Position numbers and translations under genes: made by a program. This document shows positions 13,095 to 55,689 of a stretch of DNA of 64,000 nt, piece by piece. The DNA is from Linnemannia hyalina (Eukaryota; Mortierellomycota; Mortierellomycetes; Mortierellales; Mortierellaceae), in contig JAHRHY010000002.1 in assembly GCA_019671135.1 (NCBI GenBank), positions 992,001 to 1,056,000 of the forward strand, written 5' to 3'. Positions within the stretch are counted from its first letter, which is position 1, and the number at the start of each line of letters is the position of its first letter. Below the pieces are notes generated by a model, which worked only from the letters and a program-made list of their open reading frames with translations, did no database searches and was not told where the DNA came from.

Positions 13095-15000
13095 ATGACT
13101 CTTCTAAACACAATCTCTCGACTTGCAACAGCAGCTGCGGTCGCCCATTGCCTCAAATGGATCGTGTCCGCCCAGTCTAGCCCAAAAATGGTGTACAACA
13201 TGGCCTACGCAACCCACCAAGAGTCTGTTCTCTACATCCATGGCGGATTCCTCAGCTCTGACTTCAACTTACACAACTAAATTGGATCAATTCTATAGCC
13301 TCGATTTGTCACGCAATTGGAACGCTTCAAGCCCTCTCTGGTCTGAGGTTCAGTCTGTAGGTTCCATTTCGAGCCGGATCTCATCCGCCGGCGGGCATAC
13401 AATGTCGATCTGGCGTGGCAGAGGGAAAGCACAATGTGACCATTTGGGATATGGCCAACCCTCGCACCTTTGCGGCGACCTATAGCTTTAATACTCAGTC
13501 ATGGGAGGAACTGCCGGTCTTCCCGCCACCGGTACCCGGTCCGCTCAGATTCTACCAGGCAGCAACATCAAACTTCGGAAGCCTTGGACGTGTGTATATT
13601 CCTGGATGTGCTAGGACGAACATGTTGGTTTACGATCGGTCCACGAATGAGACGAAAGTGTTACTGATGCCCAAGTTCGGAAATCTTACTAGCTGGGATC
13701 GGTATAGCTTTGTGTGGGTAAACTACCGGAACTCATTCTTCTTGGTCGGCGGGGTGGGTACTCCATCTCCGGCGTCGTATTTGTTTGAGCATCGTGTTTT
13801 CACCGATGCTGGGGCTTGGGAGGTCCTGGTACATTGCACTTTGGTTTGTTTCGCCTTTGCCCTTTTTGTAATTAGCTATTTCCTTAAGGGAGCACTGGTT
13901 ACGGTTGATGAAAGTAAGATGGTTGACCCAAGACGTTTGCTTGTATATTTTCCCCTTTTTTCATGGGAATAGCGAACGCATGGAACCGTACTCCCACATC
14001 TTTCCGAGAGCTGCATGGTCGCAGGTAACGAGTACAAATAACTGACCATCCCTATGTGCAGATGCGTCTCTGATCTACCATTTCGACCTACTCACACATC
14101 CACAATACTCCCCTTTCTTTTAGCTCAGACAGCAGAGGATAAAACCTTATATTATTTGGTGGCGTCCACAATGGCACAACAGTGGGAACTCTCTACATCT
14201 TCGATGTCTCCATGATGACTTGGACCCAAGGACCTAGCGCGCAACCTCGAAAGGGCATGGCCTGCACCCTTTCTGGTACCAACTTTGTCGTTTGGGGAGG
14301 TATGTGTCATACTTAAAAATCAGCATATCCGATCTCTATGCATGTGTTACTTTTTTTTTCTATGTACTGTATTAACAACTGTATCGCCGTGGTGATTAGG
14401 AATATCGATGAATAGCTCGGGCGCAATGGTCCCATTACCATTGACACCAATCATCTACGACATCAATACAGCCCAATGGAAAACAGAGTTTGTGGCCAAT
14501 TATCGCCCAGAAATCTACAAGGGTGAGAATGAAGACAGCGCGTTTATGAATCTAATTCATAGGATAATAGCGGCTGTGGTTGTTCTCATTTTGGTTCCAT
14601 CTGTGGTAGTTTGTTGTATACTTCCTGCTCGCCGTCATCGTCGCGCGCGAATGCAAGCGCAACAGCATGCGGAGGAAGAGGAGGAGGAGAAGAAAGATAT
14701 TGCTCCGGTGGCGCCGTCAGCTTAGAGTATTGAAAGTAGAGCCACCAAGGATTGATATTTCCTGGATACGGCGTCTCAACTTCACCATTGCCGACCATCG
14801 CCCTCATCTCTCAAGCCACCATATGCTCTCATAGTTTTGATTAACCTCCCGCGTTCGGCGCCATCACATACGTCGCCTGTCCTCCTCACCCCAGCATTAC
14901 CTCACATTCCTCCTCCTCTTACATTCAGAACGACCCACTTCAGGAAAAGATTACGTATGCGGAAGGGACCCGACTCCAGGCGCGACTGGATATGCAGTTC
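13095..15000 (+). pseudogene. Frame-broken kelch membrane protein K3
   Basis: Close relative of K2 with at least three frame breaks. Exon 1 starts at 13095 with a signal peptide and YIHGGF, but reaches TAA at 13278-13280. The kelch sequence continues in a second frame (KLDQFYSLDLSRNW) after about 13265 and in a third from about 13413 (HNVTIWDMANPRTF) to the donor at 13829. Exon 2 (13973-14024, 52 nt, ESCMVA) is intact. Exon 3 (14124-14299) needs another shift near 14150 before LFGGVHNGT. Exon 4 (14400-14725) gives SAYD-type last blade sequence, a helix (IIAAVVVLILVPSVVVCCIL) and a short acidic tail. Beyond the stop, at 14932-14994, the frame ITYAEGTRLQARLD matches the coiled-coil ends of K6 and K7, so the tail was once longer. 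Sequencing indels remain possible, but several in one gene favour real decay. Confidence 0.75.
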
Positions 15001-16562: not shown

Positions 16563-19500
16563 ATGAAGCTCAGCACCCAACTCTGTACAATTGTGTACTG
16601 CTGTCTTCTTTGGAGCGTGGCATCAGCCGCAGCACCAACCATGGCTTCCTTCTCTGCCTACATCACAGTCGACGAGAACACCCTATACATCCAAGGCGGA
16701 TCCAATGTCTCCACCTCTTCCGTCGCATACGATCAGTTCTACTCCTTGGATCTCACGCAGAGCTGGAACACCTCCAATCCTCCATGGTCCGAGGTTCCCA
16801 TCGCCTCCGGCTCTCGCATCCCAACCCGCCTTCGGACTGTCTTTCATTCCATCTCGCTCTCACGGAATCACAAGACGCTGACCTTCTGGGACGTCTACTA
16901 TTCACCACCATACTCTGTCAACTATCAGCTGGACACTAACAGTTGGGAGGAGCTGCCCTCCCTACCAGTCCAACGACCCCTCGTCAGCAAAGTGTCCAAA
17001 GCAGCGACGGACCCCTCCTCAGATCAGGTTTACATCCCTGGTGGAGCGGGTAGCAGTATGCTTTCCTTCGATCCCTTCTCAGAAATCACGAATGTGCTTG
17101 CGATGCCTCCTGGTGGAAGAGCCACAAGCTGGAACGCTGCTTCGTTTGCTTGGAATGATGTTCGCCAGACATTCTTGCTGTTTGGTGGATTTGATACTCC
17201 TGGATCGTCGTACTTTTACGAGTACAAACCCTCAAGCGCAACTCCATGGACAGCTCTGGTAAGTACAAAGAAAAAGAAAGAGTCAAGTTTGTTTGTTTTG
17301 TTGTACCTTGCAAACGCCTTAACGATTTCATATCCATCTTGTTTTTTGTTGTTGCTCAGAGCTCTTCTGGATCCGGACCACCTGCTCTTGCCGGCGGATG
17401 CATGGTGTCTGGTAAGGAAAAAAAGGGAGCACACAAACGTCTTCACGATTGTATTTGTCCTCTAGCATTCAACGTTTCATGCTGACTGACATCATTTGTA
17501 CCCCATGCTGAATTCTTTTTTGCTAGCATACAGCGGAGCCAAGATGGTCGTCTTTGGTGGCAGGTCTGGAGGCTCCATCTCTGGCAGCATTTACATCCTG
17601 GATGTCGCTTCCATGACATGGAGTAAAGGACTAGATTCTCAGCCTCGAACTGGAATGGTCTGCTCAGTCTCGGGTGACTACTTTATCGCCTGGGGAGGTA
17701 CGGCATTTCATTGTCATTATTCGATCAACATATCCCTCCAAAAAAAATTACGCTACACGCTTACCTTTTTCGTCGCTCGTCGCTAACGTTTTGTTTGTTT
17801 TGTTTACTGCCTTGTCATTTGCTTAGGAGTATCGTCCGACAGTTCTGACGACTCGGTTTTGTTGTCGGAGATCCCTATCGTTTACAACCTCAACGCGGGA
17901 CAGTGGACGACAATGTTTGTCGCCAAGAACGGTACGCCAGTACCACCACCATTAACACCAACACCAACAGAGACGCTGATGACAGGAGAACCAGGATCTT
18001 TGCCCACGGTCACACCCATCATTACTCCTACGGATTCACCCATCATTACTCCAACGGATGCGCCTACGCCTACAGACGCGCTTACACCTACAGACGGGCC
18101 TACACCCACAGACGCGCCTACACCTACAGATGCGCCTACGCCTACAGACGCGCTTACACCTACAGACGGGCCTACACCCACAGACGCGCCTACACCTACA
18201 GATGCGCCTACGCCTACAGACGCGCTTACACCTACAGACGGGCCTACACCCACAGACGCGCCTACACCTACAGATGCGCCTACGCCTACAGACGCGCTTA
18301 CACCTACAGATGGGCCTACACCCACAGACGCGCCTACACCTACAGATGCGCTTACACCTACAGATGCGCCCACACCTACAGATGCGCCTACACTCACAGA
18401 TGCGCCCACACCTACAGACGCGCCCACACCTACAGATGCGCCTACACCCACAGATGCGTCTAGACCTACAGATGCGCCTACACCTACAGATGCGCTTACA
18501 CCTACAGATGCGCCTACACTCACAGATGCGCCCACACCTACAGACGCGCCCACACCTACAGATGCGCCCACACCTACAGATGCGCCTACACTCACAGATG
18601 CGCCCACACCTACAGACGCGCCCACACCTACAGATGCGCCTACACCCACAGATGCGTCTAGACCTACAGATGCGCCTACACCTACAGATGCGCTTACACC
18701 TACAGATGCGCCTACACTCACAGATGCGCCCACACCTACAGACGCGCCCACACCTACGGATGCGCCCACACCTACAGATGCGCCTACACCTACAGATGCG
18801 CTTACACCTACAGATGCGCTTACACTCACAGATGCGCCTACACCTACAAACACGCCCACACCTACAGATGCGCCTACACCCACAGATGCCTCTAGACCTA
18901 CAGACGCGCTTACACCTACAGATGCGCCCACACCTACAGATGCGCCCACACCTACAGATGCGCCCACACTCACAGATGCGCCCACACCTACAGATGCGCC
19001 CACAACTACGGATGCGTCTAGACCTACAGATGCACCTACACCTACAGATGCGCCTACACCTACAGACGCGCCTACAGATGCCCCAATTACGACGCCTACC
19101 GACACGCCTATCACTACGGCGACGGACGCTCCCACAGACGCGCCCATTACAACTCCAACTGATGAACCTATCACTACTCCCACGGACGCACCTATTACTA
19201 CGCCTACAGACACACCCACAGATGTATCCAATCCTATGCCAACAGTCGCTCCAACGGACGCACCAATAACCACGCCCACAGACGCATTAAACCCTACGCC
19301 AACAGACGCCCCTAACCCGACTCTCACAGACGCACCAAACCCTACGCCAACAGTCGCACCCACAGACGCGCTCGTTCCTACCGTGACAAGTACTCCTGGA
19401 CATGGCAGTACGGCGACAGAATCGCCTAGTGGTACGGCAACAGAGTCATCTAGTGCAACGGTGACAACTGAGCCCGGAGTTAGCAGTACAGCGACTGGAG

Positions 19501-23448: not shown

Positions 23449-25142
23449 TGCCAGGAGCCGTAACTCCAACAGTAAAATAAAAAACCGTTCATGATTAAGT
23501 TCACCATTGTAACGAGACTAAAAAATAATGATCACGACGAGAAATATTTAACGCACGGGGGTTTGAGTTGTTATCTGATTGATCAGTGGAATATCTTGAT
23601 TAGGAAGGTTGCATATCTCGACGCGAAAACCAAATTGCGCATTCTTTATGATTAATGTGTGATCCCTACATTCCTCTCACTCGACTTTGTCGATCATCCG
23701 AATCGTAAAGAGCCTTTCAGCGCCTGGCAGAAACCAGAGGCTCCAGCACCAATTAAGCTCCATGCATTCAAGTCAGAGGCCATGTTCAACTCTAAGTTTT
23801 CCTTAGCAGTATCTTTAGTCATTTCACACATTCCATTCCTCTTTCATTTTTCTAATAAAAAAAAGGAGACAAGGTGCTTGCTCATTCTTGTTTGTTTGGT
23901 TGGTCGGTGTCTCTTTGCCATTTCTATGTCGGTTCTTACTCTGTGGCACCTTGGAGCGTACATGGTCACGTCAAGAAGGATAGATGCTTGGTCTTCTTAA
24001 TGATGGGTTGGAACGGTGCTGCGAGGAGTAGGATTGGAGAGATTGATGAAGATCCTTGCAATGTTCTGATCAGAGAGGTACTTTTTTCCTCGTGTACAAA
24101 CCACGGTATGCGTGTACGTATGTGTGCGTCCTCGTTGTTTACATGTTTTGCTTTGTTGGTGCGAGGTCATACCCAGAAGGTTATCTCCACGGGTTGTCTG
24201 TCACACCAAATACTGAGATAAAGAGTGAAAGAGCGAGATATTGAAATCAAAGCTCTACCCATTTGCCTCTCAATTGCTGACAGGTTTTTTCAACCAAAAT
24301 GCGCGTGATTCCGCAGGTGAAAGGAGTTTGTCACCTTGATAGTAGATCCTTGGACAAAAGAGTGACTATGGTCCTCTTATTCTCCTTTCTTCTATGCTTC
24401 CATCTCTTGCTACATCCTTCTTCCTTCCCTTCTTTTCTCGTTTCTCTTCCTCTCCGACTCAATATCTCACGGTAACACAAGTTAATTTTTTGCTTTTGTT
24501 TGTTTCTTGCATTCGCCATTAACGACAGTGTCCACCTTGCCTTCCCTCTCTCCTCCAATAGGCAACTGAGGCAAAAGTAAAGGCCTCAAATTCCTGCCAG
24601 ACTGTTCACACCAGCTAATTCACAAGCACAGGTCCATGTTCAATCACTTCCCCTCCAGTCTGCAACATTGTGAACTGTGAGGGCAACATCCGGTGTGCGG
24701 AAGAGACAAGAAAAATGTGTCCTTGCAAAAACAATTCTTCATGCTCAACATTTTTTTTCTTAACCGAAAGAAGGTTTGAAACACAATGAAGAGGAGTAGC
24801 TAATTGCCTTCATTTGCTTGCATGCCTTGTTGGATGTCTCGATTGTTCTAATAAACGGATGAGCGCTGCTTTTTTTTGCCTTTCTCATTCCCAATCGTCT
24901 CTATCTGGATGCATGCTACAAAGAAATAATACAAGAACATTTGGCAAGGCCAGCATCCATCTCTGTTTTTTCCTTCTTTCGTTTCTTTCTGTCCTGCTTC
25001 CTTCTCTTGCTCTCTTCTCCTTTCTTCTCTCTCCCAGCCTCCCAGCCTCCCAGTCAGAAGCATCTCCGACACACGACCCTCACTATCAACGCTACCACTC
25101 TCGACTCCAGAATATACGCACTTCAGGATATATCTATATCCG
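23449..25142. promoter_or_regulatory. K5-K6 spacer with shared upstream blocks
   Basis: Distal block near 24130-24190; GGTAACACAAGTTAATTTTTTG at about 24472; proximal block 24770-24910 with AGGTTTGAAACACAATG, GCATGCCTTGTTGGATG and ATGAGCGCTGC. A CT-rich leader with three copies of CTCCCAGC (25030-25055) precedes K6. Small open frames here lack motifs. Confidence 0.42.
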
Positions 25143-27269
25143 ATGAAATTTGCCATGCAGCTTAGCGCTGTCGTGCACTGTTGCCTCCTATGGAGTGTAG
25201 TGACAGCCGCAGGACCACAACCGGCATACTTCTCTGCTTATGCCACAGTTGACGAGAGCACATTTTACATCCAGGGCGGATCCAACATCTCCAACTCCAG
25301 TATCATATACGATCAATTCTACTCTCTTGACTTGACACAGAGCTGGAATGTCACCAATCCTCCATGGTCCGCGCTTGCCGTTGGCCTCGTGCCTGCACGA
25401 CTCAAGACCGTCTTTCATTCGATATCGCTCTCCAGCAACCGCAAGACGTTGACGTTCTGGGACATGTACAGTCTGTCGCCTTACTCTGCTAATTACCACC
25501 TCGACACCAATGCATGGGAGGTACTACCTCCCCTGTCCTTACAACCCTCCGGCTTCAAAATAGCCAAAGCAGCGACAGACCCCACAACGGACCGTGTTTA
25601 CATCCCTGGCAGCATAGGCAACAGCGGTACACTTGCTTATGATCCTATATCCAAAAACGTGGCTACACTCGCAAATCCGCCTACAGTAAACGGCAAAAGC
25701 ACCGGTTGGAACGGATATACATTTGTTTGGAGTGAGTTAAGGAAATCCTTCTTGCTCTTTGGCGGGTTGGCTACTCAAGCTTCATCTTACCTTTACGAGT
25801 ACAAACCTACATCAGCCAGTCCATGGAACGCGCTGGTAATTGAAAAAGAAAGAAATAATGATGTATCCTCATTTTCTGGTTGCGCCTCCATATTTTATTT
25901 TTGTAATGTACCCTCACAACCTTGTTTCTTCACCTCTATTTCTTCTCGTCTAGAAAGCGAATGGAACCCTTCCCCCTGTGCTTACTGGCAGCTGCATGGT
26001 TCCTGGTAAAGATAAAAACTCGTGGCATGTTGTTTGTTTTCTCTCACTGTAGCTTACGAGTGTGTTGACTAAACCGAGCTATATCCGTTATTATATTTTA
26101 TTTTCAGCGCATAATGGAACCAAAATGATTCTCTTTGGAGGAACCTACAACAGCAGCGTCTACATTGATACCCTGTATATCCTTGACGTCGCGACCTTGA
26201 CATGGAGTCAAGGAGGCAAGCATCAGCCTCGATTAGGAGCCGCTTGCTCAGTCTCCGGAGACTACCTTCTTGTCTGGGGTGGTATGACAAATACATAGGT
26301 TGATAGGTCTGACGCCAGAAAATCCAGCATCTTGATTTTTTTTGTCATCAGTGTCGCTAACATTTCATTTTTTGCGTTTAATCGTTTGTCAATCTCATAG
26401 GCACATCGGTTGACAATACAGGAATCCCTGCTCTGATGGCTGAGACTCCCGCTGTATACAACATAAACACAACTCAGTGGACGAGCGCGTTCATCGCCAG
26501 GAAAAAAGCGACACCACCACCAACAACAGTAATGACAAAACCAACAGCAACGCATCCACTTGGGTCAAAAGATACGGGAGTCGGCAGCCCAGCGACAGGA
26601 GGAGAGACGGCCATCAACAACAGTAATTTTGCGAATGTCGGAGGTGCGGTAGGCGCAGGAGTAGTAGTTATTTTGATTGCAATCGGGGTGGTCTTCAGGA
26701 GGCGGCGTAGTCACTGTCAGCAGCAAAAAAAGGAAATGCAGGGGCACTCAACTTCTCAGGCGCGACCTGATCAAAAAAATGGACAGGATCTCATTGAGGA
26801 GATGTATTCTCGACACACCCTACCGCCGTCTGAACCAGCCATTACTTCACAGGCAGTATTACAGAGCACTCACCCTGCTAACTATTCGCCGAACATCGCT
26901 CAAGGCGGCAGCCCTCAGCAAGGTTACTGTCAAGGGTTGCAACAGGTTCCCATGGACTCTTACTCGCGGCTGACCCCATTGCCTCCTCAGCGCATCAACT
27001 CCTCAGTGTCATCTCGATCTGCATCAACGCTTGTTGCCACCCCCTCCATGACAACTTTCCCTCGATATCCTTCATCGCCACAGAGTTATTTCTTTGATTC
27101 CGCTCCTCTAAGTCAGCGAAACACGCGGAATCCTCAGGATCATAGTGCTTTAACCTATCAGGAGTATTATGCCCCCGATTCAACGCCGAATAACTCTCAA
27201 TGGATTCAGAACAAGATCAACGCTCTGCAAGCGGAGGCTAACAGGCTGCAGGCGATTCTCCACCCCTAA
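25143..27269 (+). CDS. Kelch-propeller membrane protein K6, coiled-coil tail
   Basis: 595 aa from exons 25143-25835, 25954-26005, 26108-26281, 26401-27269. Signal peptide about 1-22. Propeller: FYIQGGSNIS..FYSLDLTQSW, TFWDMYS..LDTNAWEVLP, VYIPGSIGNSG, SFLLFGGLAT..LYEYK, KMILFGGTYN..YILDVATLTW, ACSVSGDYLLVWGG. Helix about 384-405 (GGAVGAGVVVILIAIGVVF), then RRRRSHCQQQKKEMQ. The ~190-residue tail is Pro/Ser/Gln-rich, has NTRNPQDHS, and ends in a short coiled coil (INALQAEANRLQAILHP). From about 25132 to about 26385 the DNA is nearly identical to K9 (36983-38236), introns included, while the tail matches K7 instead: a mosaic gene. Confidence 0.88.
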
Positions 27270-29109
27270 TTTTTTTAATGCCCTCCTATTTTCCTTAATG
27301 TCCGTTTTCTTTCGTTTTTTCTACAATACAAAAAGAACCCCATTGCCAGTTTGATATACATGCACTTTGTTCGGAAAAAGAGAGTGAGGGCAGCTTAAGA
27401 TGGAGATCGACAAAACGCAACAATAACAATTGAAAATTAGTGGAAAAGAGTTGCCAAAATACTATGTGTATTTTGTCCAGCCGTGGGCATAGGTGGGCGA
27501 AGTTGGAGGTTAGAAGAAAAGAGAATCGCTTCCTTCATCACTATCTTAAAGCCAACTTCTATGACGACCACTTCCACCATCTCTCGACACCACTGGCCTG
27601 TTTTCCAAGCTACGATCATCAATTGGGTACCGTGCGAAGAAAGAGATGGGGTGCAGACACGTCCCTTGTCCTCAATGAACTCACTCATCCCAATGTGATT
27701 TCATTCTCCTCGAAAGAAAGTGAACCGCATGTGCTTTTTTCTTTTCTAAGCGTGAGGACGAAGGCTACGTCCAGTTCTAAGAGTAGCAAGGCAGGGGGTG
27801 GAGGTTGTTCTTTTTTCGTGCATTAATAAGTACCAAAATACGCCTCGCTTTTCTCCTTTCTCCGCTCAAACGTGTTCACAAGCGCGGCAGATGGCAAAGG
27901 GCGCTTCATGTTTAATAAAGAGAGAGAGAGAGAGAGAGAGACAGAAAGAGAAAGAGGGAGAATGCAGGGGTGGGGTGGAGGGAACACTTTCTAGAAGGAA
28001 ATTCTGCATGTGGAGCCTTTTTTTTACCTTGACTAGAGTGGGAGTGACATTGATGGTTGTGTGTGTGTGTGCGTTTGTGCATGCGTGCTAGATTGTTTAC
28101 ATGCCGTGTTCATCGTTGAATGACATACACAAAAATGATTCAGGGGTTGCGATGCGTTGCATGTCGAGTAAAACTTCATTTTGAGCCCTCTTACAGGGTT
28201 CCTTAACTTGTGCTTTTATTTATCAACGCACTGTTATGATTGAGAGGCAACATTGTCGGCACCAAGGATGGAGCATATTGGAGTCAAGATGACCCTCTTT
28301 TTCTTTATCCTTTCTCCTTTTTACCTCTTCCTTCCACAACATAGTCTCTCCACAACCCCTATTCTTCTTTCCTCTCTGCCTCCCTCTCCTCCTCATCCTG
28401 ACTTCCTCTCCATCTTTTCTCTCTCCCTCTCTTCCCTCTTCCTACTAAACACAAACAATTTTTTTTGTTGGTTGCGGCAGCCGAGTGATATCTCTCTCTA
28501 CCAAGAATAAGGGAATTGCGGGGACAACAGTGACCATTCTAATCGTATTCTTACTCTTCTCCAGCAGTGTTAACAGTGAGGGGTGCTTCTAATAGGTGGA
28601 GAGACATGAAATGTATTGAGCAAGGAGGTTTCTTGACCCAAGCTTTTTTCTGCTATCGCTGATAAGGTTTGAAACGCAATCTACCGGGTGCGGAGCATGT
28701 ATTTTCTCAGTAACAGCTACTAGTTGCCATGGTCGATGCTTGCCTTGTTTCTGTTGACATGCCTTGTTTTTGTTGACATGCCTTGTTTTTGTATGTATTG
28801 CTTTTATGTACCTGACAGATGAGAACTCCGCTTTCTCTTTTCTCTTCCTTAATCGATTCAATCGAAAACCGTGAAACCAAAAAATAAAATAAATAAGAGT
28901 GACATGCAAGGTGAAGATTCCCTCTCTTTGTCTCCATTGCCGTTCCCTTTGTTCCCTTCCTACCTTTCTGTCCTTTTTCTATAGTTCCCACCGTCTGCAT
29001 TTTTTCCATCTTCTACTCAAGCAGCATCTCAAACACACCATCCCTCTCCACTCATACTTTCATTCTGAATTCTACAAAGCAACCCATCTTAATTCAATAT
29101 CTGTGTCAA
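27270..29109. promoter_or_regulatory. K6-K7 spacer with shared upstream blocks
   Basis: A (GA)n run at 27919-27941. Distal block 28090-28200 (GTTTACATGCCGTGTTC, ATTCAGGGGTTGCG, TTTTGAGCCC). Proximal block 28665-28870 with GATAAGGTTTGAAACGCAATC and a 19-bp tandem repeat containing TGCCTTGTTT (28741-28795). A small frame at 27798-28091 is low complexity. No gene is supported. Confidence 0.42.
28741..28795 (+). repeat. 19-bp tandem repeat of the spacer motif
   Basis: TGCCTTGTTTCTGTTGACA, TGCCTTGTTTTTGTTGACA and a partial third copy lie head to tail. They amplify the ATGCCTTGTTT word that occurs once or twice in each neighbouring spacer. Confidence 0.85.
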
Positions 29110-31214
29110 ATGAAGCTCAGTACCCAGCTTTTTACATTTGTATTCTGCAGCCTTCTATGGGGCGTTTCCTCCGGATCGTCGCCAAAGACAGCGTACTTCT
29201 CCGCCTATGCAACAGTTGAGGAGAACACACTCTACATCCAAGGCGGAACCAACGTCTCGACATCCGCCGACATATACAACCAATTCTACTCTCTGGATCT
29301 CACACATAGCTGGAATACGTCGAATCCCCCTTGGTCCGAGGTCACCACCGTCGGCCTCATTCCAGCGGGGCTCAAGGCCTGGACTCATTCGATGTCGCTA
29401 TTACGGAACCAAAAGACTTTGACATTCTGAACATAAATGGCTCTATCTCCTACGCTGCGAGTTTTCACCTGGACACCAACTCATGGGAAGAACTACCCGG
29501 TCTTCCCTTGATGAAGCAGGGACTTGATGTTCAACAAATGTGCACAGCAGCGACGGACCCCAAGACCAATGTGGTTTATATCCCTGGAGGCGCAGACATG
29601 GCTATGCTGTCATATTCGCCTGCTTCAAGATCCTCAACCAAACTTCCAATGGAGCGAAGAGCTACAAACACGACATTTTGGAGTGGCTACTCTTTTGTTT
29701 GGAGCGATGTGAGATTGTCGTTCCTGTACTTTGGAGGGTATGATTATCCGGGGTTCGGGTCGCCTTATTTTTATGAGTTCAGACCCGGGCGCATTAGCCC
29801 ATGGTCGACCTTGGTATTTGCATAACACTAAAGTTGATTTTCATTTTGTTTATTGTCGAGAGTGTACCCATACAGTATCACTTACAGTATCATATCTCTC
29901 TATCCCTCTCTCTCTCTCTTTTCATTTTTGTTACATCAAGAGCTCTTCCGGATCTATGCCACCTCCTCTCGCTTCCAGCTGCATGGTCCCTGGTAAGAAG
30001 GACCCGGAAGAAAAAAAACGTCAAAAATAATGCCACGATTGGCTTTCCTGCAAACAGGTGCACTTCTTTCTCATGCTGACTGACTAACTTGTCATCTTGT
30101 TGAATCTGCTTTTACTAGCCTACAACGGGACCAAGATGCTTGTCTTTGGAGGAGTTGATGCTTTTGCTCTGGAATATATTGATATCCTGTACATCCTCGA
30201 CGTCCCAACCATGACTTGGAGCCAAGGGGCAAAATATCAGCCACGGCTGGGAATGGTCTGTTCAGTCTCTGGAGACTACCTTATCGTTTGGGGAGGTATG
30301 ACAAATACATATGTCGTTCGTTCGGACGCTTGAGAACCGAAAGTGCTGATTGTTTTATATGGTCAGTTGTTAACGTTTTCCTTCCTCCCCTGTGTTTGCT
30401 GTGTGTGATCGTTGGTTATTCAGGAACATCAGCGCAAATGGACGATGCAGGAAAAATTACTCCGTTGAATGAGACCCTTATTCTGTACAATATCAAAACG
30501 GCACAGTGGACGACACAGTTTATCGACAAAAAAACCTCTAGCGACAACAGTAATAAGAACGCTGCTATCATTGGCGGTTCAGTTGGTGCGGTGGTAGTCA
30601 CCATTTTGATTGCCGGCGTGGTGGCCTTCAGGACGAGGTGCCGTCACCGTCAGCAGCAAAAGCAAGAAATACAAGTGTCGTCGCCACTCCAGCTTCGACC
30701 TGAACAGGATATCGAAGAAGAACTCGTGGAGAAGACGCACTTTCGAGATATTCAACCACGCCCGGAGAGAGTAATAAACCCACATCCAACGTTTCAGAGA
30801 ACTCAGCCTGCCAAGACTACACCACCAAACACCTCTCACAGCTACAGCCCTCAGTATGTTTACGCTCAAGGGCCGCAACAGGATTCCGTGGACCCTCCCC
30901 CGTGGCGGACCTCCATATCGCCCTCACAGAGAATTCGATCCGTGTCGTCGTCCCGATCAACATCAGCACTTGTCGTCATCCCCACCATGCCCGCTTCCCC
31001 TCGATATCCTTCATACCAGCAACAGCATCGTTCGCCTCAGCAGCAACAACAGCATCAGTCAGTTACTCTCAGTCCTCCAACTCGACGAACCACGCGGAAC
31101 CCTCAAGGCCGTAATACCCCAGAACCGACGTCTAATAGCAACCATAAAGTTCAGTACCAGATTGATGCACTGCATGCAGAGGCGAGCAGACTGCAGGCGA
31201 TGCTTGACTCTTAG
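29110..31214 (+). pseudogene. Kelch membrane protein K7 with one frame break
   Basis: Same plan as K6, about 574 aa if the break is ignored. Exons 29110-29813, 29941-29992, 30119-30295, 30424-31214. Signal peptide about 1-22; blade 1 LYIQGGTNVS..FYSLDLTHSW. At 29428-29430 exon 1 reads TTC TGA where relatives have TTC TGG GA.; the kelch sequence resumes at once in another frame (SYAASFHLDTNSWEELP) and stays open to the donor at 29814. One missing base explains it, either a recent mutation, a population variant or a sequence error. Exons 2-4 are intact: SSCMVP, YILDVPTMTW, VCSVSGDYLIVWGG, helix GGSVGAVVVTILIAGVVAF, basic RTRCRHRQQQKQE, a Pro/Ser tail with TTRNPQGRN, and terminal coiled coil IDALHAEASRLQAMLDS. 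Decay seems very recent. Confidence 0.8.
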
Positions 31215-33029
31215 TTTATAATCCTTCTTTGTATACCCTTCCCCCTTTACTTTTCCTTTGTCTTGCTAATAACAAAAAATGACAGAGAGCGAGATTGGTG
31301 ACTTTGGTCTTTTATTTGTTCTGTGATTTCTCTCCTATCTTCCTCCATTCTTCCCCAGTGAACACCATTGGCATTCATGGCTGATCATGTTGACTAGAAA
31401 TTTGCTTACCGCTTCCTTCATGTTTCCTCGCCTCATACTGCTGTCAGGAAGGTAGACATGCACTTTTGATATTACAACTCATGTGGATTGACTTATGAAC
31501 AGGCAGCGCATGATCGTTGCATAATCTCTTGCTCCTACTCCCTCCAGGGTTCCTGCAGCCCCTGCTGATCTACGCGTTTTTGGAAATGGAATAGAAGTGC
31601 ACCAAAGTGATGACGTTGCCACCAAAGTGAGAACGTCACTATCAGAAGGTGGTTGCGTTACGCATACTATCACCTCTATGGTGTTTCCCATTGACACATT
31701 CGACCATACACCATACTTTTCAGAGGTAATAAGCGGGAGCCTATCGGACGTACAGTCGCCAATTCACGTTTTTCCATATGTTGCTTGCAAGAAAATGTCA
31801 ATATGCTGGAGAACTTTGCGTTTGTCTGCATGTTAATATACCTCTTTCCTCGCCCATCCACATACCTAGTACCAGAAATGGCCAGCACTGTTTTCCCCTC
31901 TTACATGCTCACTTTGGCCAGGGCCTGGCAAGAGAGGAATGGACCATTTTCTCCAGAGAACTAGAGGTTAATCGAGATGCTGTACGCGGACTTTTTTTTT
32001 CCATCTCGTACAGAGTGAGAGAGACACTGTTCTTCCTGTTGGGGGTATGTTTTTGCGTGTGCTTCGTTTACATGCCTTGCTTGTTTGTCTAGGAATCAGG
32101 GGCTGTGATGGAAATACTCGATCGATCACCGAGTGAGACTATTTTAATTTGAGCCCGTGCCTTTTTTAATTAGTGACAAGGTCAAGCCTTTTTTTCTTGG
32201 TCGACCACAGGATTGACCATGTCTCCATGTCAGCTGCTTGGACATAATGGAAGATGGTAAAGGTAGACCTCTCTCGTCCTACCTCACTCCTTCTTCTGTT
32301 ACACCTTCTATTTTCCTCCCATCTCTCTTCTCTTTGGCGAAATGAACCTTATATATTATTTTCGATCTGATGTTTTTTCTGTGTATCGATGTCGGTGAGG
32401 GATCGAGGTAATGCTGGTCTAATCACGCCAACCTCATTTCACTACCTCAGGTACATGCAGAACTCATCAAACCCTACTCACTTTCATTTTCTAGTATCTT
32501 CAATTATAAGGAGACACTGATTCATGGAAGGCATGAAAAATGGATGTCTACAGGGTTCTACAAACAGCTCATTTTTTTGATCCTTGATGACGAGTGGAAC
32601 ATAATCTAGAGGGGACATGAAATTTTTGGCGGCAACTCCTTGTGTGTTTGTGAGCCTTGCTTTTCGAACGCCCTGTGCGTATGTAATCGACAAATGAGCA
32701 TTGCTTGTTCGCTTTTTCTTGTTCAACACCGCTTACATCTAAATCGTACGACAAAGACAATATAAAAAAAAGCCCCAGAAAGGGTCGAACGAAGATGCCA
32801 CTCCCATTGATTTGGTTGCACTCTGTCGTTGTTGTTCTTTCTTCTTTCTTTCTTCAATCTCTGCCCCCACATTGTCACTTACCCCTCACGTCGACATCGT
32901 CATCGACACACCTCTCCCTCCCTTTAAATCAACAATACCCTCGTCACAATTCTCCAGCTTTAGTTCGACAGCATCCACGACACAGCATCCCTGTCCATCC
33001 AACATCCTCTCCCTCCTAACTCGACCACT
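31215..33029. promoter_or_regulatory. K7-K8 spacer with shared upstream blocks
   Basis: Distal block 32055-32200 (GTTTACATGCCTTGCTTG, AATCAGGGGCTGTG, CCGAGTGAGACT, TTTGAGCCCG). Proximal block 32610-32785 (TTTTTGGCGGCAACTCCTTG, GTAATCGACAAATGAGCATT, ATCGTACGACAAA, AATATAAAAAAAAG). A short frame at 31778-32092 has no motif. No gene is seen. Confidence 0.42.
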
Positions 33030-35031
33030 ATGCTTCCTTTTTATACACAACATTACCCAACTCTCAGTGCTCTCTTATGCTGCTGTCTTCTATGGGGTGT
33101 ATCAGCGGCACCACCGCGACCGGCGTATTACTCCGCCTATGTGACAGTCGAAGAGAACACCCTCTACATCCAAGGCGGATCCAACATCTCGACATCCGCC
33201 GACGTATACACCCAATTCTACTCTCTGGATCTCACACAGAGCTGGAATACATCGAGCCCCCCATGGACGGAGGTCACTTCCGATGGTTCTTTTCCAGTAC
33301 GACTCAAAGCCCAATTTCATTCAATATCATACTCACAGAGTCGCAAGGCGTTGAATTTCTGGGATATGGACAAGTCGCCTCCCTACTCTGTGGGGTTCCA
33401 CCCGGACACCAACAAATGGGAAGATATGCCCGCACCACCTCCACTAAAAACTGCCGATCTCAAAATATGCAAAGCGGCGACGGATCCGACGACTGATCGT
33501 ATTTATATTCCTGGAGGCGCAAGCAAAGGCATGCTTGTTTACGATCCCTCATCCAAAAAATCGACGGCTGTTGATATGCCACCTGGAAGAAACCTTTCGA
33601 GCTGGAGTACTTATACGTTTGCATGGAACAGTGTGAGGGGATCCTTTTTCCTTTTTGGAGGCGTGCTGCTTACTAAACAACCGTCCCTTTATGAGTACAT
33701 GCCGGCAAGAGCTAATTGGGCTCCACTGGTACTTGTCCTGTCGTTCTGTGTGATATAGCTGCGACATCTTTGCTTTCTTGTACCCTAGAATGAGCTCTCA
33801 CAATGTCACCCCCTTCTCTCTCTCATTTAATTCATTCACACAGATCTCGGCTGGATCAGTGCCACCAATTCTTTCGGGCAGCTGCATGGTCTCTGGTAAA
33901 GAAGAAACAGACAAACCCAACACACACGCATACATACAGTTCCGTGATCGCTCATTGCTACCAAGCATTCCTCAGTTCATTGTCACTGACTTGTTTGCCT
34001 TTTTGTTCAATATCGCTCTTGCCAGCCCACAACGGAACCAAGATGCTTGTCTTTGGAGGGATGTATAGTCTTACAATGTCCGGTACTCTATTCATCCTCG
34101 ATGTCCCCACCATGACATGGACTCAAGGACCAGGTTCTACACCTCGAATGGGCATGGTCTGTGCCGTTTCTGGAGATTACTTTATCGTCTGGGGTGGTAT
34201 GACGATACATTGCTTGCCGCTGACTCAAAACGTACCAAGAACTCTATACAGTTGTTTTTTTATCGTTCGATATTAATATTCATTTTTTGGCTTATGTGTT
34301 TGTGCTTCCTTGTGTTTCAATTGATAGGAATTTCGTGGGACAATGCCGCGGCCCCTGTTCCATTATCAGATACCCCCATCGTTTACAACATCAACCTGAC
34401 ACAATGGACGTCAACTTTCGTCCCCAGAGCAAAGGAAACACCAACAACAACAATAATAACAACGTCGACAGCGGTACCAACAGAACCAATAGAGCCAACA
34501 GCACCAACAGGATCAACAGAGCCAGGAGTCGCTAACCCGGTGACAGAAGAAGCAACCAGCAGCAGGAGTCACAAAGCCGTAATCATTGGCACTTCAGTCG
34601 GTGGTGGAGTATTCCTCATCGTCTTGATTGTCTGCGGAGTGTGCCTCTGCAAGAGGCGCCGTCGTGCCCAGCAGCAGCAGCTACATAAAAAAATGCTGGA
34701 AGAGCCCACGAAAAAGTTCCAGTTCCGTATCGTCCAACAGCCCGAAACAGATGCCACCATAGAGCCGACATTCTATCCAACCCGCCCCTTCAGAATCACG
34801 CCACCAACGACTCCGAAAAAATCAAAGCAAAAACTCGGCGACAGATCGGAGAAAGATCGACTGAATTCTCCTACACACTGGAACTCTTCGCATTCTCATA
34901 GTGACCGATCCTTGACGTCCCCGTCGACATCGACGCTTGTCACCTCTAACATCGATACCAACACTACCGCCACGATACTTCCTCAGCATATTGTCACACT
35001 CGACCGCTTCGAGGCTGAACGCAATCGCTAG
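33030..35031 (+). CDS. Kelch-propeller membrane protein K8, RIVQQ-type tail
   Basis: 541 aa from exons 33030-33728, 33844-33895, 34026-34196, 34328-35031. Signal peptide about 1-27 (LLCCCLLWGVSA core). Propeller: LYIQGGSNIS..FYSLDLTQSW, NFWDMDK..PDTNKWEDMP, IYIPGGASKGML, SFFLFGGVLL..LYEYMPARANW, KMLVFGGMYS..FILDVPTMTW, VCAVSGDYFIVWGG. The linker is Thr/Pro-rich. Helix about 390-412 (GTSVGGGVFLIVLIVCGVCL), then CKRRRRAQQQQ. The tail carries KKFQFRIVQQPET, TRPFRITPP and ILPQHIVTLDR, all shared with K9 and not with K6/K7. A relic coiled coil lies just downstream in another frame (35193-35258), so the tail type may have been replaced or truncated. Confidence 0.87.
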
Positions 35032-35192
35032 CCCTCTCTCGTTCTTAACGCTGTGTGTAGCCTTGCGCGTTCTCAGGGCAACCGCCAGGATTAAAGCAAT
35101 CTCAACAATCCTTAGAAGCGGTAATATCATTCCATCGACCTCACGACTCCTCACATCTAGCGGACTTAGCAAGAACCATCGAATCGACACCT

Positions 35193-35258
35193 AGTAATGA
35201 ACAAAAAACCCAGGAGCAGATGAGCTCTCTGCAGGCAGAAGTGAATAAATCTCAGGGG
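35193..35258 (+). pseudogene. Relic coiled-coil tail downstream of K8
   Basis: About 160 nt after the K8 stop, in a different frame, the sequence reads SNEQKTQEQMSSLQAEVNK. This aligns with the K12 C-terminus (SNEELQRQVQALQAELSR), keeping SNE, Q and LQAE at matching spacing. It is too short to be a gene and is best read as a remnant of an older K8 tail. Confidence 0.5.
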
Positions 35259-36993
35259 GGAACTCATCTAGTGTATTTTTCACATTTCTCTCCTTCTTAC
35301 TTTGGCTTGATAATAGGAAAAAAAATATCCACTGACTGTCCATTTGTTATGCTTGTTTGTTGGGTGGAGTGTGTTTGTGCCTCTTCAATCTCCATTATCC
35401 TTTTACAAGCATTCTGAGCGTGTATGGACATGTCGAACGGAAAGATGGAATGGTTGGATCTTTGTGTTTTGTCCGTTACTGTTTTCCTATGCGATGGATG
35501 CGAGGGCTGTATGGTGCCAAAAGTCACGTGTAAGATCTCTGTCCAAAGATGGAGGAAGCGAGGGATGAACAGAGTTCTCACTACTCACAACTCACAACTT
35601 TGCATGAACAATAATCACAGCAATCCCCCCCTCACCGCCAACCCATTTCTTCTTTGATTTTCATGTTCTCGTTATACCCTTTATTATCACAGGCTTGTTC
35701 TTCCAACCTATGGAAGATGATTGAGGCACAACAGAGTCAACAGAGTACAGGCTGGCTTTGTCGTTCGTCTAAAGAACGAAAGTAAGTGTATTTTGCTCCA
35801 AACAAAAAAGAATGAGCCGCATGTGTGTGTGTAAAGACGCGGGGTAGGACAACTACAGCTGAAGAGGCCTGTGACCCTTCTTGCCCTTTTTCCATACTCA
35901 CATTGGCCAGACCTTGGTAATTGTGGAATGAGTCGGTCGTTCTTGTTTTACAAGGAAAGGATAGGGAGAGATGTAAAGGGACATCAAGAGGGAGGGGGGA
36001 AGGGTAGGGAAATCGAGGAAGAGGTTTGCACTTGGACCTTTTTACTTAACCCGGGTCTGTTGATGTGTGCTTGCTTGTTGGCACGCCTTGATTGATCACA
36101 ACGCAAATGGATTTCATATAGGGGCTGTCATTTTGAAAAAATCTTACTCGTCGAGTGAGACTGGAATGTGAGCCCTGTCAACGCGCTTTGTAATTACCAA
36201 GCAAGCCTTTTCTTGATTAAGGGAGCTACCAGCAGGATCATGTAAGCATTCTAGCTCCTCGGATGCCACGGCGTATCAACAGCAACAATGACCCTCTCTC
36301 TCTTTTGCCCGACCCTCCTATTCTCTTTCTCTAACACTTCCCCTCGTCCTCCCCCGCTTTCTCCTCAATCCCTCTTTCGTGTCGCAGACGTTAACGTTTG
36401 ATCGTTTGTTTCCTTTCTTGCATAGAAGGCAATGGGGGAATGTCAATCGCAAGGGGAAACTATCCCGAAGCATTGTCATTCACCTCATTTCTTTACTTCA
36501 AGTCCATGTGGAACTCAACCCCTTGTCATCTCATCACTTCTGTCATTGACGAGGGAGGACCCCAGGCCACTGTTTTTTATCCTTGATAAAGGTTGAAACA
36601 TAATCAATAGCACGCGTGAAATATTTTGGTGGCGACCCCTGCTTGTTTAATTGCTTTGCTTGCTAAATGCCTTGTTTCTACGTAATCGACTAATGAGCGC
36701 TGTTTGTCAGCTATCATCATGCCTAGCCACTACCTTTACGATAATGCAATAAAAAGGGTCCTGGCAGAGGAGAACTAAGGTGACATTTCTTTCATCTTTG
36801 CGGCAGAGTTGCTTTTTTCGTCGTTCTTTTTCTCTCTTTCTATCTCTTTCACCTTCCTTTTTATCTTCCCCTCCCCTCCCCCCAACACACACACAGACCT
36901 CTGTTCCACAGAATCTCAGACACACCGCCTTTTACATCCAAATATCCTCTTGTAATACCACCACAACACCCATCTTTTACATATCTATATCCG
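35259..36993. promoter_or_regulatory. K8-K9 spacer with shared upstream blocks
   Basis: Distal block 36070-36240 (GGCACGCCTTGATTG, ATAGGGGCTGTC, GTCGAGTGAGACT, TGTGAGCCC, AATTACCAAGCAAGCC). Proximal block 36585-36775 (GATAAAGGTTGAAACATAATC, TTTTGGTGGCGACCCCTGC, AATGCCTTGTTTCTACG, TAATCGACTAATGAGCGCTG, CAATAAAAAGGG). Small frames at 35297-35657 lack motifs. No gene is seen. Confidence 0.42.
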
Positions 36994-38943
36994 ATGAAAT
37001 TTGCCATGCAGCTTAGCACTGTCGTGCACTGTTGCCTCCTATGGAGTGTAGTGACAGCCGCAGGACCACAACCGGCATACTTCTCTGCTTATGCCACAGT
37101 TGACGAGAGCACATTTTACATCCAGGGCGGATCCAACATCTCCAACTCCAGAATCATATACGATCAATTCTACTCTCTTGACTTGACACAGAGCTGGAAT
37201 GTCACCAATCCTCCATGGTCCGCGCTTGCCGTTGGCCTCGTGCCTGCACGACTCAAGACCGTCTTTCATTCGATATCGCTCTCCAGCAACCGCAAGACAT
37301 TGACGTTCTGGGACATGTACAGTCTGTCGCCTTACTCTGCTAATTACCACCTCGACACCAATGCATGGGAGGTACTACCTCCCCTGTCCTTACAACCCTC
37401 CGTCTTTACAATAGCCAGAGCAGCGACAGACCCTACAACAGACCGTGTTTACATCCCTGGCGGCACAGGCAACAACAGCATGCTTACTTATGATCCTTCA
37501 ACCAAAAAATCGACCGTTCTCGCAGATCCGCCAGCGGTAGACGGCAAAAGCACCAGTTGGAACGGATATACGTTTGTTTGGAGCGAGTTAAGGAAATCCT
37601 TCTTGCTCTTTGGCGGGTTGCTTACTCCAGCTTCATCTCCATTTTACGAGTACAAACCTACAGCGGCCAGTCCATGGAACGCGCTGGTAATTGAAAAAGA
37701 AAGAAATAATGATGTATCCTCATTTTCTGGTTGCGCCTCCATATTTTATTTTTGTAATGTACCCTCACAACCTTGTTTCTTCACCTCTATTTCTTCTCGT
37801 CTAGAAAGCGAATGGAACCCTTCCCCCTGTGCTTACTGGCAGCTGCATGGTTCCTGGTAAAGATAAAAACTCGTGGCATGTTGTTTGTTTTCTCTCACTG
37901 TAGCTTACGAGTGTGTTGACTAAACCGAGTTATATCCGTTATTATATTTTATTTTCAGCGCATAATGGAACCAAAATGATTCTCTTTGGAGGAACCTACA
38001 ACAGCAGCGTCTACATTGATACCCTGTTTATCCTTGACGTCACGACCTTGACATGGAGTCAAGGAGGCAAGCATAAGCCTCGATCAGGAGCCGCTTGCTC
38101 AGTCTCCGGAGACTACCTTCTTGTCTGGGGTGGTATGACAAATACATAGGTTGATAGGTCTGACGCCAGAAAATCCAGCATCTTGATTTTTTTTGTCATC
38201 AGTGTCGCTAACATTTCATTTTTTGCGTTTGATCGTTTGTCAATTTCTTAGGCACGTCGGTTGACAATGCAGGAATCCCTGCGACTCCTGATGTATACAA
38301 CATCAACACAGCTCAGTGGACAAACACGTTCATCGCCAAAATAAAACCAACACCAAAACCTACAACTACTACCACAACAACAACTCTACCTACAGGAACA
38401 GGATCAGCAGGAGTTGAAAACCCGACAACAGGGGTAGAACCCCCTAGTGAGAGCAACAAAGCCGCAATCATTGGTGGCTCCGTCGGTGGTGGACTCTTTC
38501 TTCTCCTTTTGATTGTCGGCGGGTTGTGCTTTTGGAGAAGGCGCCGCAATACTGCCCAGCAGCATCGAACCAAGGAGATAGGGGAGGAGAAGCCACCTGC
38601 AAAGAAGTTTCAAGTTCGCATTGTTCAACAGCCCGAGACAGGATCGGCAGAAGAATCCACATTCTCTCCAAGTCGCCCCTTCAGAATCACGCCCAGTAAC
38701 TCTCACAGGAAATCGAACAAGAAAGAGGGACAAGAGGCGGATGATGAACTCTCTTATTATTTCCACTCGCATGGCGGGGCCCCATCGCCTACTCGCAGTG
38801 AAGAGTCGTTTTCTTCGTCTGCCCCGTCGACAGCAACCTCAACCCTTGAGGACGATTCCCACCACACCAACGTTACCAACACCACTCTGCTTCCTCAGCA
38901 TATCATCACACTCAAGCCATCCCAACGTCAACGTTACCGCTAG
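36994..38943 (+). CDS. Kelch-propeller membrane protein K9 (K6 ectodomain, K8-type tail)
   Basis: 536 aa from exons 36994-37686, 37805-37856, 37959-38132, 38252-38943. The first ~137 residues differ from K6 at only two positions (A/T at 9, S/R in NSxIIYD), exon 2 and introns 1-3 are near-identical, and exon 3 has four replacements. In contrast, exon 1 residues of about 138-231 carry 24 replacements. Helix about 376-397 (GGSVGGGLFLLLLIVGGLCF), then WRRRRNTAQQHR. The tail has KKFQVRIVQQPET, SRPFRITPS and LLPQHIITLK as in K8. So the gene joins a K6-like extracellular part to a K8-like cytoplasmic part, with the junction near the end of intron 3 or start of exon 4 (about 38236-38300). Confidence 0.88.
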
Positions 38944-53737: not shown

Positions 53738-55689
53738 TCACACAGCCTGAGCAGCAGCTCGCTTCCTCTCCTCAAAGACAGCCCTCGCCTTATCCATACT
53801 GTTCGATACATTCGCCGGCGCCGTCCCCCTCGCCTCCACCTTCTCCATAAACCCAGCCTGTGGTCGATTCCCAAACGCCTTTGCCAAGAATATCCTCCAA
53901 AGCCAAGTTGGCATGTTGGTCGAGACCAAACGTGCAATTATGCCGACAGTATCCTTGCGAAGGACGTGACTGAGCATCCGGCTGTTCTTGTAGGTTGCTA
54001 AGGCTTTGGGGCGGCGTTCTTCCTGGTACTCCGAGAGGAGTTGTTCAATATCGGAGGCAGTCCTGTTGGGGAGGGCGTAGAGTAAGTTTGTGAGCGCTAG
54101 GGCATCGTGCATGGCAGCTACGGCGCCTAATTAAATGTATGAAAATATGAAGACGTTAGTTTTGAGTATCTGATACTGTTGCGCATGGAAAACAAAACCG
54201 ACAAAAACCGCATGATTACCTTGTCCCCCTGTGGGGTTGATTTTGTGGCAAGCTAGTAGTGATGAGAAAATAATACAAACAGAGCAGAAGTGTGAGGATG
54301 TGATATTTCTCCATCAAGTGAACGTCCGCGTCTCTATCAAGTACCATAAAAAAAAATGCTCAGTCACATACCGTCACCAAGCAAGACAGTACGACCATGA
54401 TACCACGTCTCAAAGACCTTCTCCTCCAACATAACCTTGGAAATGAGTTCCTGTGGGGTCCTGTCATAAAAGTCACCCAGCGTCATATACTTGTCGCCAA
54501 CCTTGACTGGTGTCTGGAGATGACGGGTCTCGTCGCACATTTGTTTTGCAGCATGGGGTCCCCATTCAGAGTTGTCATTGTTCCTGAACCGCTGCTCCAT
54601 GGCTGCCTTGTTCGTCGTTTTTGTGAGGTGGTGAATGATCATCCAACAGCATGTGTTCTGGGCTGTTGTGAACACCAGCCAACTATTTAATTGAGAAAGA
54701 TACCGTTGCGGTTAGTTAGGACGCTTATGATCACCCACAGCAAAACAGAAGCAGACCGATATCCACAAGGATTACGTGTAAGGAAGCTCAATTCCGCGAA
54801 CAGTCAAGACCTGACTACAAGGATTTTTCAAGACCGGGAACTCCTCTGGATCCATGTACGTCGTCTGACCCACAAGACAAGTACAATTAAACGGCAACTC
54901 CTCATCATCGACCTTAGGCAACAGACCCTTGACCTTTAGTTTCTCATACAGCCTCTGACGAACCGCACTGTACGCCCCATCTGCACCTACAAGAAGGTCG
55001 CCCTCATAGGCGGTATTGTCCGCAGCCTGGATGGTCACCTTGTCGTCCTCTTCGGAAATGGTGAGGATCCGCTTCTTGAGCAAGATTTTGTGTTCTGGAA
55101 TCTGACGTTGAAGGAGGTCGTAGAGGATTGGGCGCGCAATGATGTACTGTGCATAACCAGTCCTATCAAAAACACGGGACGAAGGAGAAAAAACAATGAG
55201 CATCCGTGAGTTGTTAATAGACAAGATCTTGTATATTGCTTAGTAGCTGTGTCACTGTAATGCCACAGGGATGTACATTTCTTCGAGTGGTGTAAAGTCC
55301 TGGAGTGGATACGGTTCTAGATTCTCCTTGTGAGCGGCGATAGCTGTGTAGCGAAGTCCAAGTCTCACTAGTTCGTCATAGATACCCAGCTGTTGGAATA
55401 GAGCCAGCAGTGGGGAGCCGATTGAGATCGCAGAACCTGTGGAGGAAAAGAAAGTGCGGTTAATAAAAACACAGACTAATACAAGGGATTAGGCGACAGG
55501 TTTGTCAATGTAATGATGAGGTTGAACGGACTCAAAATACATGAGTGGTACATTACCCAAGGATTTGATGGATGAGGTACGCTCAAAGATAACATAAGGG
55601 ATGTCGATTTTCTCCAGAAGGGCACCGAGCATGAGTCCTCCCAGTCCTGCGCCCACGATCAAAACTGTCGGTTTCCCTTTTGTCATCAT
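53738..55689 (-). CDS. FAD-dependent monooxygenase F2 (PHBH/UbiH-like)
   Basis: 470 aa from exons 55689-55557, 55436-55277, 55162-54776, 54682-54372, 54252-54220, 54126-53738. Motifs: VLIVGAGLGGLMLGALLE at the N-terminus, DG motif LLVGADGAYSAVRQRLYE, LLGDG at the end of exon 4, CHKINPTGGQG in the 33-nt exon 5, and AMHDALALTNLLYAL at the start of exon 6. Exon 3 ends in phase 2 (TAC AC before GTAATC) and exon 4 starts one base earlier than in F1 and F3, a compensated shift of the intron boundary that restores Thr-Trp. Start could be either of two adjacent Met codons. Very similar to F3 (for example ILTISEEDDKVTIQAADN in both), so the pair is a recent tandem duplication. Substrate unknown. Confidence 0.88.

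What the first reader, a model, noticed from the sequence alone, without database searches (positions are those of the whole stretch)
25132..38300. K6 and K9: same ectodomain, different tails
From about 12 nt before the ATG to the end of intron 3, K6 (25132-26385) and K9 (36983-38236) are nearly identical, introns included. Past that point K6's tail resembles K7 (RNPQ plus coiled coil) and K9's resembles K8 (RIVQQPE, RPFRITP). This points to gene conversion or unequal exchange that joins extracellular and cytoplasmic modules in new pairs.
Basis: seen in the sequence. Interest (0 to 1): 0.85.

Follow-up and report, generated by a model that had tools for sequence, protein, structure and literature searches.

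The report
Shared kelch head, two different tails
In a soil fungus, two neighbouring genes for likely cell-surface proteins carry almost the same outer part on different inner tails and promoters, because DNA copying between the genes re-matched the outer part except for one stretch that escaped; this resembles how some animal immune receptors are kept in matched pairs, but the function here is unknown.

Summary
K6 and K9 match from 13 nt before the ATG to the end of intron 3, introns included (118/118, 101/102, 116/119 bases); promoters and tails differ. Synonymous divergence is 0.23 in the island and 0.28 at the start of exon 4, but 0-0.01 in the flanks. So K6 already had a K9-type head before the recent homogenisation: an older exchange made the chimera, and later conversion re-matched most of it. 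Flank trees put K6 with K9; tail trees reject that. The K9 head-tail pairing also occurs in Linnemannia elongata and L. schmuckeri, so K9 has the old pairing and K6 is the chimera. Breaks on both sides argue against simple unequal crossing-over. The genome matches L. hyalina SCG-10, assembled from PacBio reads, so an assembly duplication is unlikely, though reads were not seen. A paired-receptor role is possible but untested; tract ends may only reflect where homology ends.

The parts
25130..25551 (+). K6 5' converted block (end of 5'UTR, N-terminus, about blades 1-2), 419/422 identical to K9 36981-37402
25552..25814 (+). K6 divergent island (codons 137-224, about blades 3-4), 221/263 identical to K9 37403-37665; dS 0.225, dN 0.165
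25815..26397 (+). K6 3' converted block (end of exon 1 to nearly the end of intron 3), 575/583 identical to K9 37666-38248
26401..26500 (+). K6 start of exon 4 (end of the propeller): K9-type but old (dS 0.28 over 29 aligned codons, 12-nt gap)
26501..27269 (+). K6 linker, transmembrane segment and tail; best paralog K7 (RNPQ motif and coiled-coil-like end seen by eye)
25143..27269 (+). K6 gene, 595 aa; exons 25143-25835, 25954-26005, 26108-26281, 26401-27269
36994..38943 (+). K9 gene, 536 aa; exons 36994-37686, 37805-37856, 37959-38132, 38252-38943
   Evidence: Linnemannia hyalina KI688_005734 (P0003) is identical over its first 126 and last 288 of 432 residues
37403..37665 (+). K9 copy of the divergent island
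38340..38943 (+). K9 linker, transmembrane segment and tail; best paralog K8 (RIVQQPE, RPFRITP seen by eye)
24143..25129 (+). K6 upstream region; best local alignments with K4 (SW 1161) and K7 (1088); with K9 927
35994..36980 (+). K9 upstream region; best local alignment with K8 (SW 1314, highest of 15 pairs)
29110..31214 (+). K7, nearest paralog of K6 by tail; exon 1 carries a frame break near 29429 in this assembly
33030..35031 (+). K8, nearest paralog of K9 by tail and promoter; 541 aa
29191..29350 (+). Possible K7-K8 conversion tract in exon 1 (89% v 56% in the rest of exon 1); K8 side begins near 33123

Best explanation
K6 is a chimera: a K9-type kelch ectodomain with its own K4/K7-like promoter and K7-like membrane segment and tail. 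The exchange that made it is old enough to leave synonymous divergence of about 0.23-0.28. Later, after the split from L. elongata, gene conversion between the two direct copies 11.85 kb apart re-matched 25130-25551 and 25815 to about 26397. It left the 263-bp island and the exon-4 start unconverted. Shown: the two-age pattern, the incongruent trees, breaks on both sides, and the same head-tail pairing in K9 relatives. Inferred: that K9 was the source of the old head, that conversion was without crossover, and that the products are surface proteins with one recognition head under two promoters and with two outputs, differing mainly in blades 3-4.
For: Synonymous sites: flanks 1 change in 153.7 sites, island 12.25 in 63.0, exon-4 start 5 in 21.3; Fisher p 8e-8 on rounded counts. 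Segmentation puts the island at 25552-25814. Introns are as conserved as exons, so protein constraint cannot explain the identity. Flank tree: K6+K9 bootstrap 100, with P0001, P0002 (L. elongata) and P0004 (L. schmuckeri) outside; the AU test rejects K9 with these to the exclusion of K6 (p 0.006), so the flank identity is younger than that split. In the island K6 is no closer to K9 (73%) than to P0002 (76%). Tails reject K6+K9 (2.5e-35) and K6 with all K9-types (8.5e-6). K9-type head and tail occur together in P0001, P0002 and P0004. K7's head pieces match P0013-P0016, P0018 and P0019 among their best hits, so K7-like tails elsewhere sit on K7-like heads. Both genes lie in one 3.81-Mb contig.
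Against: The GENECONV-like test gives only P 0.004 for K6-K9 from 500 permutations, uncorrected for 15 pairs. The K6+K7-type tail clade has bootstrap 58 only. The tree of island plus exon-4 start is unresolved and rejects none of four constraints, so the age of the chimera relative to the species split is open. Direction of the recent conversion is not settled: of 6 flank residue differences, 3 look K9-derived, 1 K6-derived, 2 unclear. No DNA from a second Linnemannia species was available. L. hyalina K6 itself is not among the 50 proteins found with K6, so not finding K6 in other species proves little. There are no expression, localisation or ligand data, and raw reads were not seen.
Confidence: 0.8

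Rival explanations
1. A single recent duplication or conversion of the head, with the island then made by fast amino-acid-changing selection in K6 and K9.
For: Island has 29.75 non-synonymous against 12.25 synonymous changes (dN/dS about 0.73), 24 of 88 residues differ, and residues changed on both branches.
Against: Synonymous divergence in the island is at least 20 times that of the flanks and close to that of the exon-4 start; selection on the protein does not by itself raise dS. The region is not generally fast: K8-P0007 is 82% there against 80 and 88% in the flanks.
Confidence: 0.07
2. The island was put into K6 or K9 by a third paralog after homogenisation.
For: Sharp edges on both sides. 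A short K8-K9 run lies in the island at K6 coordinates 25652-25663 (P 0.03, uncorrected for 15 pairs); of the four residues in it that differ from K6, two (170, 172) depart from K9's relatives, and the lysine at 172 is also in K8.
Against: The next genome matches to the K9 island are 75% over 105 bases and 66% over 276, and to the K6 island 76% over 91 and 80% over 54, so no present copy seen supplies the whole island. Residues 173 and 174 of the K8-K9 run agree with K9's relatives and look inherited. The old exon-4 start would need a separate cause.
Confidence: 0.13
3. Unequal crossing-over or whole-gene duplication made K6 and K9, followed by replacement of promoter and tail.
For: A direct tandem array of similar units, in which unequal crossing-over is expected.
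Against: Similarity stops at both ends: upstream 700 bases 48.8%, tails 23% in amino acids. Two further replacements would be needed.
Confidence: 0.06
4. Assembly artefact: one ectodomain placed twice by misassembly, or two made alike by consensus mixing.
For: Only one assembly was seen and raw reads could not be examined.
Against: The copies differ at 53 positions between 25130 and 26397, in promoters and in tails. The published assembly of what appears to be this strain used PacBio reads with mean polymerase length 21,933 bp; subread lengths are not given. The K9 pairing recurs in other species.
Confidence: 0.03
5. Same history, but functionally neutral: conversion happens where K6 and K9 are alike and stops where promoters and tails are too different to recombine. 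No paired-receptor role. (A reading of cause, not exclusive of the best explanation.)
For: Tract edges lie at the edges of recognisable homology. Heads are not clearly faster than tails in K8-P0007 (80, 82 and 88% in head segments, 84% in tail).
Against: The island escaped although similar enough to convert. In K9-types heads change faster than tails (P0001-P0002: 67-71% in head flanks, 88% in linker plus tail; K9-P0002: 73 and 70% in head flanks, 84% in tail), which fits recognition but does not prove it.
Confidence: 0.5

Closest known systems
Siglec-11/Siglec-16 paired receptors of primates (PMC5701461; abstract and section 5 read)
   Same: Two related genes, region for the ligand-binding part homogenised by repeated gene conversion, different signalling, and a less similar region left beyond the converted part.
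   Different: Sialic-acid-binding Ig-like lectins in animals, one inhibitory and one activating; here a kelch propeller in a fungus with no known ligand or signal. In Siglecs the converted region includes sequence upstream of the gene; here the promoters stay different.
Clustered protocadherins of fugu (PMC1852091; passages read)
   Same: Tandem membrane-protein genes with regional conversion that homogenises some modules and spares others.
   Different: There the C-terminal ectodomain (EC4-EC6) is homogenised and EC1-EC3 is not. Common tail exons in protocadherins are recalled, from no call.
Podospora het-d/het-e NWD family (PMC1805685; abstract read)
   Same: Fungal propeller-type recognition domains whose repeats are exchanged within and between family members.
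   Different: WD repeats exchanged as units in intracellular NOD-like receptors (the latter from the listing of PMC12222747); here membrane proteins and a long tract.
Kelch propellers of solved structure (NS1-BP, KLHL17, KEAP1)
   Same: Predicted fold of the K9 head (best hit 6n3h_A, E 8.6e-15, 17% identity).
   Different: Those are domains of cytosolic proteins (recalled); K9 is predicted to have a membrane helix, and an outside position of its head is inferred.

Membership tests
Interlocus gene-conversion pair | Two-sided tract of excess identity that includes non-coding sites | tested here: met
Interlocus gene-conversion pair | Within the tract, paralogs of one species group together against orthologs | tested here: met
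   bootstrap 100 in flanks; AU p 0.006 against K9 with its relatives but without K6
Interlocus gene-conversion pair | Direction of transfer known | tested here: inconclusive
   old head: K9 pairing found in other species; recent tract unresolved
Kelch beta-propeller | Kelch domain above Pfam cut-off, and propeller fold | tested here: met
   PF24681 76.7 (K6) and 81.3 (K9) bits v 50; model and fold search for K9 only
Galactose oxidase enzymes (a name that databases give to several relatives) | Catalytic copper-site residues | not tested
   only short kelch motif models of that name matched
Paired receptors | Single-pass membrane proteins with near-identical ectodomains and different cytoplasmic tails | tested here: inconclusive
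   one hydrophobic segment beyond residue 100 in each (K6 381-408, K9 376-402); heads alike, tails 23%; topology and surface location inferred
Paired receptors | Opposing (activating and inhibitory) signals | not testable with these tools
   needs experiment
Paired receptors | Same ligand, same cells | not testable with these tools
   promoters differ, so co-expression is not assured

The most novel reading that the evidence does not exclude
K6 and K9 are a fungal paired-receptor system: a surface kelch head for non-self or partner recognition, kept in common by conversion on two signalling tails under two promoters, with blades 3-4 kept out of conversion because they set specificity. The array would be a combinatorial head-tail store for Mortierellaceae.
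Probability: 0.15. Interest if true: 0.85.

Novelty: new member of a known kind. Interest (0 to 1): 0.5.

Why it matters
Conversion-matched heads on different tails are documented in animal immune receptors. A clean case in an early-diverging fungus, with an escaped island that names the residues to test, gives a way to ask whether these apparently unstudied kelch membrane proteins are recognition receptors. It also warns that trees of this family built from whole proteins will mislead.

Tried and rejected
First guess that K6 was the donor, from intron 3 resembling K7 (66%); dropped when K9 relatives with the same pairing were found. Deeper chimerism of K9 (head nearer K7-type, tail nearer K8): head placement not resolved (AU p 0.31 for grouping with the K8-type). 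K7-K8 tract: 89% over the best segment 29191-29350, but P 0.018 uncorrected for 15 pairs, so left as possible. Tail homogenisation in L. elongata AG-77 (P0014/P0018): 209/309 identical in the head part, 34/45 and 122/137 in the tail; suggestive only. A search with the K6 tail region alone found nothing at E 1e-3 among 2130 candidates; weak, because K6 itself seems absent from that database. A present donor of the whole island: none seen in the genome.

Papers: listings only, nothing on this family seen: 6 of 6 listed; 12 of 9,347; 12 of 70,357; 5 of 5; 10 of 5,857; 8 of 172; 6 of 11,326; 15 of 217. Passages of PMC8778642 mention galactose oxidase in a table and no kelch. Only open-licence papers were searched, so this is no claim that nothing is in print.

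Full report
What is there. The window lies in contig C12 (3,814,424 bases) of a 51,506,068-base genome in 50 contigs. The protein Linnemannia hyalina KI688_005734 (P0003) is identical to K9 over its first 126 and last 288 of 432 residues, with an 18-residue model difference between, and its contig has the same length as C12. C50's length equals the published N50 of L. hyalina SCG-10, 2,317,658 (whole text of PMC8444964 read). The paper gives 51,558,230 bp in 52 contigs, slightly more than is held here. [quoted passage not shown] Kelch genes K4-K9 lie in a row on the plus strand; each was modelled with three introns, all GT-AG. K6 and K9 have a hydrophobic N-terminus that I read as a signal peptide, a kelch domain, a Thr/Pro-rich linker, one hydrophobic segment and a tail.

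The match. K6 and K9 align without gaps from 25130/36981 to the end of intron 3. By block: 419/422, then 221/263 in 25552-25814, then 575/583 to 26397. The introns are 118/118, 101/102 and 116/119. Among the 14 other pairs of K4-K9, introns are 37-67% identical. Upstream, K6-K9 is 48.8% over the aligned 700-base stretches. From 26401 to 26500 the match is 78 of 88 aligned bases plus a 12-nt gap, then it fades.

Two ages. Synonymous divergence (Nei-Gojobori) is 0.011 for codons 1-136, 0.225 for 137-224, 0 for 225-306 and 0.281 for the first 29 aligned codons of exon 4. Fisher p is 8e-8 for old against recent segments, with counts rounded. Protein selection alone therefore does not make the island, and K6 must have had a K9-type head before the recent homogenisation. 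A three-segment model has the best BIC (404.8); four segments, with a further step near 26380, reach 407.0 and one segment 462.9.

Relatives. K9-type heads with K9-type tails occur in L. elongata (P0002), L. schmuckeri (P0004) and P0001, whose source gives no name but which is 97-98% identical to L. elongata P0005 and P0006 over its last 232 residues. P0005 and P0006 are models that lack part of the head. P0007 is the K8 type. P0014, P0015, P0018 and P0019 carry K7-type tails on heads that are among the best matches of K7's head pieces. In the two flanks K6 is 99% and 95% identical to K9 and 69-79% to P0001, P0002 and P0004. In the island K6 is 73% to K9 and 76, 70 and 66% to P0002, P0001 and P0004. 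AU tests: flanks reject K6 with K7-types (2.3e-4) and K9 with its relatives but without K6 (0.006); tails reject K6+K9 (2.5e-35) and K6 with K9-types (8.5e-6) and accept K6 with K7-types, though that clade has bootstrap 58; island plus exon-4 start rejects none of four constraints.

Position in the fold. The AlphaFold2 model of K9 (mean pLDDT 73.3; 26 of the 31 ten-residue blocks from 21 to 330 at 85 or more) has 23 strands between residues 32 and 330 and a helix at 386-417. Grouping the strands into six blades is my reading. On it the island covers blade 3 and most of blade 4, where several of the less certain blocks lie, and the exon-4 start supplies the last strands of blade 6. Foldseek's best PDB matches are kelch domains (6n3h_A, E 8.6e-15).

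Mechanism. Breaks on both sides, unchanged gene order, and different promoter and tail fit gene conversion without crossover. One interrupted tract and two tracts cannot be told apart. The outer tract ends lie at the ends of recognisable homology, so they need no selection. The island does need a cause: chance, patchy repair, selection against its conversion, or a later small conversion; a short K8-K9 run inside it leaves the last open. Direction of the recent event is open: of six flank residue differences, three look K9-derived, one K6-derived and two unclear. In the island 12 look K6-derived, 8 K9-derived and 4 unclear; in the exon-4 start (to residue 340) 4, 2 and 3.

Function. No tool result shows function. 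A single-pass protein with a propeller head suggests recognition or adhesion (inference). Heads change faster than tails between P0001 and P0002 (91/136 and 58/82 in head flanks, 168/192 in linker plus tail), but not clearly between K8 and P0007 (80, 82 and 88% in head segments, 84% in tail). The closest working analogy is Siglec-11/16. Membership in paired receptors needs shared ligand and opposing signals, which were not testable here.

Noticed in passing
29110-29813 (K7 exon 1, near 29429): K7's reading frame is broken in exon 1 while its tail exon is open: a young pseudogene or an indel error of the long-read assembly.
   Followed up: partly
17904-19100 (K4 exon 4): Long array of 18-base repeats (60 copies in register counted) coding a Pro/Thr/Asp/Ala-rich stalk; long frames on the minus strand overlap it and are probably spurious.
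   Followed up: no
13134-14665 (K3): K3 matches fall in different frames with a stop inside, so K3 looks disrupted.
   Followed up: no
29191-29350 and from about 33123: K7 and K8 share an 89% stretch in exon 1 against 56% elsewhere in it: perhaps another conversion tract.
   Followed up: partly
P0001 v P0002: The reverse of the K6-K9 pattern: the island region is more alike (73/88) than the head flanks (91/136, 58/82).
   Followed up: no
C33:108511-108993 and 114854-115336: Two kelch matches on opposite strands with identical scores, perhaps a recent inverted duplicate.
   Followed up: no
2784-3083, 54775-55074, 57539-57838: A second repeated family; minus-strand frames over two of the three copies have FAD-binding Pfam matches below cut-off.
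   Followed up: partly
P0003, P0005, P0006, P0008: Public gene models of K9-types skip parts of the propeller; probably annotation errors, but alternative splicing was not excluded.
   Followed up: no
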